64,000 bases of DNA. Origin: Moraxella sp. FZFQ2102. GTDB taxonomy: Bacteria > Pseudomonadota > Gammaproteobacteria > Pseudomonadales > Moraxellaceae. The notes below the pieces were generated by a model. That model did not search any database. It was not told the DNA's origin and saw only the letters and a list, made by a program, of their open reading frames with translations. Location of the stretch: positions 1-64,000 of the forward strand of contig NZ_CP099960.1 of assembly GCF_024137865.1 (NCBI RefSeq). The letters are read 5' to 3'. Numbering within the stretch: position 1 is the stretch's first letter; each line of letters opens with the position of its first letter. This document shows positions 24,250 through 26,928 of this stretch, piece after piece. The translations under genes were made by a program, and so were the position numbers.

Positions 24250-26928
24250 TTATACATTCTCATCATCGACAGTCACTATGGTAACTTCGATATCATCAAT
24301 ATCATCCGCTTCTTCATGCTCAACGCACGCCATACCAACCAAGGCCTCTTCATCGGCGATGCGAATCAGCTTAACACCTTGCGCATTACGCCCTGCGGTA
24401 GCGATTTGGGCAACTGGAGTACGCACCAATGTGCCTTTGTCCGAGATTAAAATCACATCCTCATCACCAGTCACGGCAATTGCCTTGACCAACTGACCAT
24501 TACGCTCAGAAGTCTTAATGGCGATAACGCCCTTACCGCCACGGCCTTTGGTTGGGTAATCGTCAATCGGGGTGCGTTTGCCAAAGCCATTTTCGCACGC
24601 ACACAGGATCTCACCAGTGGTCGGTGCAACAACAAGCGACACCACACGGCTAACAGCAAAGCCATCGGTATCATCACTGTCGTCTTCGACAATCTCCTCA
24701 TCATCACTCAGTGCCAATAGATTGACACGCATACCACGCACACCCTTGGCGACACGGCTCATCGCACGGATGCTGTCTTCTTTAAAGCGAATTGCCTTAC
24801 CTTCATTGCTAAATAGCATGATTTCTTGGTTGCCATCGGTGATTGCGACGCCAATCAGCGTATCACCTTCTGCCAAATCAATCGCTCTTAGACCATTAGC
24901 ACGCAAATTGGCAAATTGTGACAAGGCGACACGCTTAACCGTACCTGATGCGGTGGCAAAGAATACAAAGCTGTTTTCGTCCTTAAGATCTGTGACAGGC
25001 AAGATGGCAGTCACTGATTCATCCGATTCTAGATTGATCAGGTTGACGAGTGGGCGACCTTTTGAACCGCGGCTGGCGATCGGAATCTCAAAGCCACGCA
25101 AGCCAAACACGCGACCAGTATTGGTAAAGCACATGATATGCGCGTGCGTACTGGTGACAAGCATATGCTCAATCACATCATCTTCTTTCATAGCGGTGGC
25201 TGAACGGCCTTTACCGCCACGCTTTTGGGCTTGATAATCACTGATTGGCTGCGTCTTGGCATAGCCTGTGTGCGATACGGTCAAGACAACGGTTTGTTCT
25301 GGAATCAGATCTTCACGGTTGAAGTCATGTCGCGCATCGACGATATCTGTGCGACGCTCGTCACCAAATTCATCACGAATCTCAATCAGCTCACTACGCA
25401 CGACACCCATCAGTACATCAAAGTCATTCAAAATCAGCTCAAGACGAGCAATCTCGGCCAAGATTTCTTGATATTCACCCGTCAGCTTATCCTGCTCTAG
25501 ACCTGTCAAGCGATGTAGCTGCATATCCAAGATGGCATTGACCTGCTCAGGCGATAGACGATAGCGTGTGTTATTGTCAATCAAGCCATAAGGCGCATTC
25601 AGATCCTCACCCTCGATATACTCAGGGCGAATCGAGCTGGCACCAGCTGCCTCAAGCATCGCCACCACGCCACCTGACTGCCAAGTACGCTCAAGTAATC
25701 TTTCGCGCGCTTCAGCTCTATTTGATGACTGCTTGATGGTCTCAATGACTTCATCAATATTGGCAAGCGCAATGGTCAGACCTTCGAGCAAATGCCCACG
25801 AGCCAAGGCTTTGTTCAATTCAAAAATGGTGCGACGTGTCACGACTTCTTGGCGATGACGGATGAATGCCGCCACCAAATCACGCAAAGTCATCAGCTTA
25901 GGCTGACCATTATCCAGTGCCACCATATTGATGCTAAAGCTTGACTCTAGCGGTGTCTGGGTGAATAGATTGTTGACCATGACTTCCGAATTTTCGCCAC
26001 GACGTAAATCAATCACGACTCGCACACCTTCTTTGTCCGATTCGTCACGAATCTCGCTAATGCCTTCGATTTTTTTGGCATTGACCAAGTCAGCGATGTG
26101 CTTAATCAGATTTGCCTTATTGACCTGATAAGGAATCTCAGTAAAGACAATGCGTTCACGGTCTTTGTTTGCACCGCTATCGCTCATCGGCTCAATGTGA
26201 TAGCGACCACGGATGTGCAGACGACCCTTGCCCGTGCGATACGCATCAATGATGCCGCTACGACCATAGATGATACCACCCGTCGGGAAATCTGGGCCTG
26301 AAATATGGGTAATCAGCTCATCTGTCGAGATATTTGGATTGTCAGCATAAGCAAGGCAGGCGTTTAGCACTTCGGTGAGATTGTGCGGTGCCATATTGGT
26401 CGCCATACCCACGGCGATACCTGCTGCACCGTTGACCAGTAGATTTGGGATACGAGCAGGCAGAACGCTTGGCATCTTCATAGAGCCGTCGTAGTTATCT
26501 TCCCAATCGACGGTATCTTTGTCCAGATCAGCAAGCATACGATGCGTCAGCTTCTGCATCTTCATCTCGGTATAACGCATCGCCGCTGGTGGATCTCCAT
26601 CCATCGAGCCGAAGTTACCCTGACCATTGACCAACATATAACGCAGGCTAAAATCCTGCGCCATACGCACGATGGCATCATACACTGCTATGTCGCCGTG
26701 CGGATGGTATTTACCGATGACATCACCGACCACACGGGCTGATTTTAGGTATTTTTTGTTATAATCGTTGCCCAATTCGTGCATGGCGTACAAGATACGG
26801 CGGTGCACAGGCTTGAGTCCGTCACGCACATCTGGCAATGCACGAGAGACAATGACGCTCATGGCGTAGTCTAAATATGACCGCTTTAACTCATCGACAA
26901 TACCAATCGGACTGACTGAATCACTCAT
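24250..26928 (-). CDS. gyrA: DNA gyrase subunit A (isoleucine at residue 80 in the quinolone-resistance region)
   Basis: Breakage-reunion subunit of gyrase, which introduces negative supercoils. The 892-residue protein has the catalytic Tyr in AAMRYTEMKM (about residue 119), the GyrA-box QKRGGKG and a six-blade C-terminal DNA-wrapping domain with an acidic tail (EADDIDDIEVTIVTVDDE). The quinolone-resistance-determining region reads HPHGDIAVYDAI: residue 80, equivalent to E. coli Ser83, is Ile (codon ATA at 26689-26691, minus strand). The E. coli Asp87 equivalent is unchanged. In Moraxella catarrhalis wild type has Thr here, and Thr80Ile is a reported fluoroquinolone-resistance change. Confidence 0.97.
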   Translation of the reverse strand: MSDSVSPIGIVDELKRSYLDYAMSVIVSRALPDVRDGLKPVHRRILYAMHELGNDYNKKYLKSARVVGDVIGKYHPHGDIAVYDAIVRMAQDFSLRYMLVNGQGNFGSMDGDPPAAMRYTEMKMQKLTHRMLADLDKDTVDWEDNYDGSMKMPSVLPARIPNLLVNGAAGIAVGMATNMAPHNLTEVLNACLAYADNPNISTDELITHISGPDFPTGGIIYGRSGIIDAYRTGKGRLHIRGRYHIEPMSDSGANKDRERIVFTEIPYQVNKANLIKHIADLVNAKKIEGISEIRDESDKEGVRVVIDLRRGENSEVMVNNLFTQTPLESSFSINMVALDNGQPKLMTLRDLVAAFIRHRQEVVTRRTIFELNKALARGHLLEGLTIALANIDEVIETIKQSSNRAEARERLLERTWQSGGVVAMLEAAGASSIRPEYIEGEDLNAPYGLIDNNTRYRLSPEQVNAILDMQLHRLTGLEQDKLTGEYQEILAEIARLELILNDFDVLMGVVRSELIEIRDEFGDERRTDIVDARHDFNREDLIPEQTVVLTVSHTGYAKTQPISDYQAQKRGGKGRSATAMKEDDVIEHMLVTSTHAHIMCFTNTGRVFGLRGFEIPIASRGSKGRPLVNLINLESDESVTAILPVTDLKDENSFVFFATASGTVKRVALSQFANLRANGLRAIDLAEGDTLIGVAITDGNQEIMLFSNEGKAIRFKEDSIRAMSRVAKGVRGMRVNLLALSDDEEIVEDDSDDTDGFAVSRVVSLVVAPTTGEILCACENGFGKRTPIDDYPTKGRGGKGVIAIKTSERNGQLVKAIAVTGDEDVILISDKGTLVRTPVAQIATAGRNAQGVKLIRIADEEALVGMACVEHEEADDIDDIEVTIVTVDDENV

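What the first reader, a model, noticed from the sequence alone, without database searches (positions are those of the whole stretch)
26689..26691. GyrA carries isoleucine at residue 80, the Moraxella fluoroquinolone-resistance position
The quinolone-resistance region reads HPHGDIAVYDAI, and counting from the start codon the Ile is residue 80 (codon ATA), aligned with E. coli Ser83. In Moraxella catarrhalis the wild-type residue is Thr80, and Thr80Ile is a known substitution in isolates with reduced fluoroquinolone susceptibility. ACA to ATA is a single transition. The Asp87 equivalent is unchanged. This suggests past quinolone exposure of the strain, unless Ile is native in this species.
Basis: partly seen in the sequence, partly recalled or inferred. 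Interest (0 to 1): 0.7.

Follow-up and report, generated by a model that had tools for sequence, protein, structure and literature searches.

The report
Quinolone-resistance gyrase mutation in pig Moraxella
A pig-nose Moraxella strain already published as ciprofloxacin-resistant carries the textbook drug-target change in DNA gyrase and a matching change in topoisomerase IV, which probably explains its resistance by an ordinary, well-known mechanism.

Summary
In detail: gyrA (24250-26928, minus strand, 892 aa) has ATA, Ile80, at 26689-26691, aligned with E. coli Ser83; Asp84 is unchanged.

Ile is very probably derived. 17 of 21 readable genus genomes have Thr, and the nearest GyrA found, P0001, equals this one over residues 1-588 except Thr80.

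Only 2 of 21 genomes have that, both with GyrA Ile.

The genome (2,336,058 bp) matches Moraxella sp. FZFQ2102 in chromosome length and MCR-1.35 residues. This pig isolate is published as ciprofloxacin-resistant; the main text lists no quinolone determinant and does not name gyrA or parC.

Best explanation: classical two-step target resistance, GyrA Thr80Ile plus ParC Ser80Phe.

Less ordinary: codons 39-98 differ at 1 of 180 bases from another Moraxella species that differs by 11% in the rest of gyrA and also has ATA. This suggests transfer between species, with moderate support (scan p = 0.018).

The parts
24250..26928 (-). gyrA, DNA gyrase subunit A, 892 aa, intact
   Evidence: (PF00521, E 2.5e-162)
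26620..26739 (-). quinolone-resistance-determining region (GyrA residues 64-103, E. coli 67-106; the E. coli limits are recalled)
   Evidence: coordinates by arithmetic; alignment to E. coli GyrA
26689..26691 (-). codon 80, ATA, Ile (E. coli Ser83 position); Thr in 17 of 21 readable genus genomes
26677..26679 (-). codon 84, Asp (E. coli Asp87 position), unchanged
   Evidence: coordinates by arithmetic
26635..26814 (-). codons 39-98: tract with 1 difference in 180 bases to genome G020, against 11% elsewhere in gyrA; candidate recombinant tract carrying Ile80
   Evidence: coordinates by arithmetic

Best explanation
The Ile at GyrA residue 80 is a derived fluoroquinolone-resistance substitution (Thr80Ile) in a multidrug-resistant pig Moraxella, strain FZFQ2102. 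It acts together with a Phe at the Ser80 position of ParC in the same genome. Shown: both residues are present, both depart from the common state of the genus, the nearest GyrA relative found has Thr80, and the strain is published as ciprofloxacin-resistant. Inferred from established knowledge of gyrase and topoisomerase IV: loss of the hydroxyl side chain at this position removes an anchor of the water-metal-ion bridge that holds the quinolone in the cleavage complex, first in gyrase and then in topoisomerase IV, so the drug no longer traps cut DNA. The order (gyrA first, parC second) is inferred from two genus genomes that have GyrA Ile with ParC Ser and none of the 21 with the reverse.
For: Residue and codon; E. 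coli Ser83 equivalence. Genus scan: of 22 genomes, 21 read and 1 (G007) without a match; 17 of 21 Thr, 4 of 21 Ile (G000 ATA, G020 ATA, G006 ATA, G013 ATT). ParC: Phe in 2 of 21 (G000, G013), both among the 4 with GyrA Ile; Ser in 14 and Thr in 5 of the others; by arithmetic the chance of both falling in those 4 is 6/210 = 0.029. P0001 is identical to this GyrA over residues 1-588 except Thr at 80. Strain identity: chromosome 2,336,058 bp in both and the MCR-1.35 residues reported in the paper, with A23 and T451 unlike MCR-1.36. Published phenotype includes CIP resistance. No pentapeptide-repeat (Qnr-type) protein at E <= 0.001 in the genome. The GyrB stretch compared shows no change peculiar to this genome. 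A review (passages and its Moraxella section read) reports Thr80Ile in M. catarrhalis as causing low-level FQ resistance. ParC Ser80Phe with GyrA Ser84Phe occurs in resistant S. epidermidis (passages read).
Against: The GyrA-Ile genomes are few, and for three of the four I have no phenotype. Ile at this site is also common among the more distant relatives P0074-P0120 (21 of 47), of which those with names are called Psychrobacter or Moraxellaceae, so Ile alone is not proof of drug selection. Efflux and aac(6')-Ib-cr were not searched for here.
Confidence: 0.93

Rival explanations
1. The Ile80 allele did not arise by mutation in this lineage but was acquired, as a short gyrA tract, by homologous recombination between Moraxella species (or from a third donor common to both). 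This is a rival about origin, not about function.
For: G000 and G020 differ at 1 of 180 bases over codons 39-98 but at 11% in the rest of the gene; the ratio 0.05 is the lowest of 190 genome pairs (next 0.29), and among 60-codon windows anywhere in the gene, in pairs more than 7% apart, the lowest value (0.054, next 0.242) falls on codons 39-98 of this pair, which include codon 80. Both use ATA, while G003 and G021 use ACC and ACT. Scan test with site rates p = 0.018. FastTree distance G000-G020: 0.007 in the tract, 0.166 in the rest.
Against: p = 0.018 is moderate and rests on a Poisson model. Codons 39-98 are more conserved than the rest in the typical pair too (median ratio 0.69). A cruder two-segment test gave p = 0.0002 for this pair (5.0% before base 575, 11.9% after), but of nine other pairs compared one had a stronger gradient (G004-G009, z -5.37 against -4.75) and several came near, so I give it no weight. 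G000 and G020 are sisters both in the tract tree and in the rest tree, so the branching order does not conflict. No donor or direction identified; the host of G020 is unknown.
Confidence: 0.45
2. Ile80 is the native residue of this species and has nothing to do with drug selection.
For: Several Moraxella and many more distant GyrA proteins have Ile here (32 of 120 listed). The neighbour G020 also has Ile.
Against: P0001 is identical over residues 1-588 except Thr80; 17 of 21 readable genus genomes, G003 and G021 among them, have Thr; the rare ATA codon; the accompanying ParC Phe; published CIP resistance.
Confidence: 0.05
3. The strain's ciprofloxacin resistance comes mainly from something else (acquired gene or efflux), and the two target changes contribute little.
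For: The strain carries many acquired resistance genes; efflux and aac(6')-Ib-cr were not tested here.
Against: No quinolone determinant in the published list; no Qnr-type pentapeptide protein at E <= 0.001; the two target changes sit at the most typical positions (recalled).
Confidence: 0.06

Closest known systems
Moraxella catarrhalis GyrA Thr80Ile (Yamada and Saito 2014, known to me only through the review PMC9815622, passages and section 20 read; the original was not looked up)
   Same: Same residue number, same substitution, same gene, same genus.
   Different: Another species, from a pig; here accompanied by ParC Phe at the Ser80 position. The review's section reports low-level resistance for GyrA Thr80Ile and names no ParC change in M. 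catarrhalis.
Moraxella sp. FZFQ2102 (Che et al. 2023, PMC10228737; parts 1-3 of 4 of the text read)
   Same: Same chromosome length (2,336,058 bp) and MCR-1.35 residues: I take this to be the genome of the window. Ciprofloxacin resistance is reported.
   Different: The paper's main text names neither gyrA nor parC (0 hits), so the target changes are an addition here.
Staphylococcus epidermidis GyrA Ser84Phe plus ParC Ser80Phe double mutants (PMC7640383, passages read)
   Same: Same pair of enzymes changed together; ParC Ser80Phe has the same name.
   Different: Gram-positive host; Phe rather than Ile in GyrA.
Moraxella nasibovis GyrA (P0018; longest contig 2,227,058, equal to the contig of genome G006)
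   Same: Also Ile, codon ATA, at the same position (as G006).
   Different: ParC keeps Ser (as G006); phenotype not seen.

Membership tests
Fluoroquinolone-resistance substitution at the GyrA Ser83/Thr80 position | Intact GyrA with a non-Ser/Thr residue at the position equivalent to E. coli Ser83 | tested here: met
Fluoroquinolone-resistance substitution at the GyrA Ser83/Thr80 position | Derived relative to the wild type of the lineage | tested here: met
   Thr in 17 of 21 readable genus genomes and in P0001; no DNA of a second conspecific isolate seen
Fluoroquinolone-resistance substitution at the GyrA Ser83/Thr80 position | Raised quinolone MIC of the carrier | tested here: inconclusive
   Strain listed as CIP-resistant; no number seen, other mechanisms not all excluded
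Two-step gyrA/parC target resistance | Second substitution at the ParC Ser80 position in the same genome | tested here: met
   Phe, codon TTT
Two-step gyrA/parC target resistance | Drug insensitivity of the purified enzymes | not testable with these tools
   needs enzyme assay
Qnr-type quinolone resistance | Pentapeptide-repeat protein in the genome | tested here: not met
   0 matches at E <= 0.001 for PF00805; control rang in 9 of 14 genomes
Interspecies mosaic gyrA | Local near-identity between species far above the gene background | tested here: met
   codons 39-98, 1 of 180 against 11%; lowest of 190 pairs; but scan p is only 0.018
Interspecies mosaic gyrA | Conflicting branching order between tract and rest | tested here: not met
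   G000 and G020 are sisters in both trees
Interspecies mosaic gyrA | Identified donor | not tested
   no donor search beyond the 21 genus genomes was made

The most novel reading that the evidence does not exclude
Quinolone resistance is moving between Moraxella species by transformation: a short gyrA tract of about 180 bases around codon 80, carrying the Ile (ATA) allele, is shared by two species whose gyrA is otherwise 11% different, as known for other naturally competent genera (recalled), in a pig-nose strain that also carries a chromosomal mcr-1 variant.
Probability: 0.45. Interest if true: 0.5.

Novelty: new member of a known kind. Interest (0 to 1): 0.3.

Why it matters
It supplies the likely mechanism for a published ciprofloxacin resistance for which the paper's main text lists no determinant, in a livestock strain that also carries mcr-1.35 and many other resistance genes. 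GyrA Ile at this site recurs in the genus (4 of 21 readable genomes) and ParC Phe appears only on that background (2 of 2), which makes target-site genotyping a candidate tool for surveillance of animal Moraxella. If the shared tract is real, Moraxella species exchange resistance alleles.

Tried and rejected
ParC as an import from the G001/G010/G013 group was considered because the 29-base QRDR string looked alike. Over codons 39-98 the ratio for G000-G010 is in fact the lowest of the pairs scored (0.383), but only just (next 0.384, median 0.631), and 20 of 180 bases differ; over any 60-codon window another pair is lower (0.311). A recent import is not supported; an old one is not excluded. 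I read the two ParC Phe codons as independent.

GyrB: over the 90 residues shown, G000 differs from G020 at one residue, where G020 is the odd one, and from G003 and G021 at one Ser/Thr site where other genomes also have Ser; no contribution is claimed. ParE: Gln at the position homologous to GyrB Asp426 (position name recalled) was first taken for a possible third mutation, but G000, G020, G003 and G021 all have it and the last two have GyrA Thr, so it is clade-wide. Qnr-type proteins: no match.

Literature, from listings only and in a library of open-licence papers: Moraxella with gyrA or Thr80Ile (20 of 488 listed), with T80I and other terms (30 of 146), with Thr80 (1 of 1), pig with gyrA (15 of 92), M. 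bovis or bovoculi (6 of 6). By title and abstract none of the listed papers is about these changes in animal Moraxella; the unlisted ones were not seen. The 80 named loci (best 80 of 586; by record title one is called Moraxella, M. boevrei) enter no count.

Full report
What is there. The window holds an intact gyrA at 24250-26928 on the minus strand, 892 aa (PF00521 at E 2.5e-162). Residue 80 is Ile, codon ATA, at 26689-26691, in HPHGDIAVYDAI; residue 84 is Asp. The alignment to E. coli GyrA (6rks) puts Ile80 on Ser83. ATA is used for 2 of 71 Ile codons in the gene. The neighbouring reading frames listed (18000-32000) include, by my reading of the translations (recalled family features, no family search made), a 2-isopropylmalate synthase upstream and a DNA primase downstream. 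No search for mobile elements was made.

Whose genome. The window lies in a single 2,336,058-base contig. A 2023 paper (PMC10228737; text parts 1-3 of 4 read) gives exactly 2,336,058 bp for the chromosome of Moraxella sp. FZFQ2102, from nasal swabs of diseased pigs in Fujian. The one EptA/MCR-type match in our genome is a 540-aa protein with the residues that the paper gives for MCR-1.35 (Q277, T354, T381, A491, S498, N499, N500, S501, S502, F503, T506, S508, A511), and A23 and T451 where MCR-1.36 has S23 and M451. I take the strain as identified.

Is Ile native? In the genus scan 22 genomes were searched; G007 gave no match to any of the four genus-wide queries and was not read. Of the 21 read, 17 have Thr and 4 have Ile: G000 (this genome, ATA), G020 (ATA), G006 (ATA) and G013 (ATT). 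Among the 120 listed of 7956 protein hits, the residue is T 67, I 32, S 17, M 2, A 1, V 1. The best hit, P0001, is identical to this GyrA over residues 1-588 except for Thr at 80; it differs at seven further sites up to residue 871 and then in the variable tail. Named entries: M. catarrhalis (P0005), Moraxella sp. ZJ142 (P0002) and M. nasovis (P0034) have Thr; M. nasibovis (P0018) and M. nasicaprae (P0009) have Ile. Thr is therefore most likely the ancestral state around this strain and Ile derived. Against: no DNA of a second isolate of this species was seen, and Ile is frequent in more distant relatives (21 of 47 among P0074-P0120).

The second target. ParC of the same genome reads HPHGDFACYE, Phe at residue 80, codon TTT. 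In the genus Phe occurs in 2 of 21 readable genomes, G000 and G013; the others have Ser (14) or Thr (5). Both Phe genomes belong to the 4 with GyrA Ile; by arithmetic 6/210 = 0.029 under random placement. G020 and G006 have GyrA Ile with ParC Ser, and none of the 21 has ParC Phe with GyrA Thr, which fits gyrA first, parC second. ParC Ser80Phe together with a GyrA Ser84Phe change is seen in resistant S. epidermidis (passages of PMC7640383). The GyrB stretch compared shows nothing peculiar to G000. ParE has Gln where the other 17 genomes have Asp in the EGDSAGG motif, but in G000, G020, G003 and G021 alike, two of which have GyrA Thr, so it is a lineage trait.

Phenotype. The paper's Table 1 lists CIP among the resistances of FZFQ2102, and its list of resistance genes holds no quinolone determinant; gyrA, parC and topoisomerase have 0 occurrences in the main text. 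Only this paper in the held library names the strain. No Qnr-type pentapeptide protein was found at E <= 0.001. A review says that Thr80Ile causes low-level FQ resistance in M. catarrhalis (PMC9815622, passages and section 20). I did not see a numeric ciprofloxacin MIC, and efflux and aac(6')-Ib-cr were not tested.

Mechanism. From established knowledge of type IIA topoisomerases (recalled): the Ser/Thr hydroxyl at this position and the acidic residue four positions on hold the water-metal bridge to the quinolone keto acid. Ile in GyrA and Phe in ParC remove the hydroxyl in both enzymes. Shown here: the residues, their departure from the genus state, their co-occurrence. Inferred: the causal link to the published resistance.

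Where the allele came from. G020 is another species judging by DNA identity to G000 (gyrA 88.6%, parC 81.6%; a gyrB-bearing stretch 86.9%), yet over codons 39-98 it differs from G000 at 1 of 180 bases, against 11% in the rest. Among 190 pairs of the 20 genomes with full-length gyrA (G013 dropped, only 186 codons) this ratio, 0.05, is the lowest, the next being 0.29; and scanning every 60-codon window in the pairs more than 7% apart, the lowest value (0.054, next 0.242) falls on codons 39-98 of this pair. With site rates taken from the other pairs, 13.3 differences were expected and 1 seen; a scan over window sizes gave p = 0.018 in 2000 simulations. FastTree distance 0.007 in the tract against 0.166 in the rest. 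Against: the two are sisters in both trees, codons 39-98 are more conserved than the rest in the typical pair (median ratio 0.69), a cruder two-segment test was just as striking in an unrelated pair, and no donor is known. I put transfer at about 0.45. A recent import into parC is not supported.

Verdict.

Noticed in passing
G000:C1:1093677-1094186 region (outside window; L179): ParE has Gln instead of Asp in the EGDSAGG motif (the position homologous to GyrB Asp426, name recalled) in 4 of 21 genus genomes: G000, G020, G003, G021. A native change at a position linked elsewhere to quinolone sensitivity (recalled).
   Followed up: partly
window 24250-24310: The acidic C-terminal tail of GyrA after residue about 873 differs in length and sequence even from the otherwise 99% identical P0001.
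   Followed up: no
P0074-P0120 (protein hits): 21 of 47 of these more distant GyrA relatives carry Ile at the same position; those with names are called Psychrobacter or Moraxellaceae. Native or selected is unknown.
   Followed up: no
G000:C1:413955-414395 (outside window; L225): Chromosomal mcr-1.35, already published for this strain.
   Followed up: yes
genome G013 (L209, L197): A fragmented genus genome (410 contigs) with the same double state, GyrA Ile (ATT) and ParC Phe (TTT); with a different Ile codon and a different place in the gyrA tree, so probably reached independently.
   Followed up: partly
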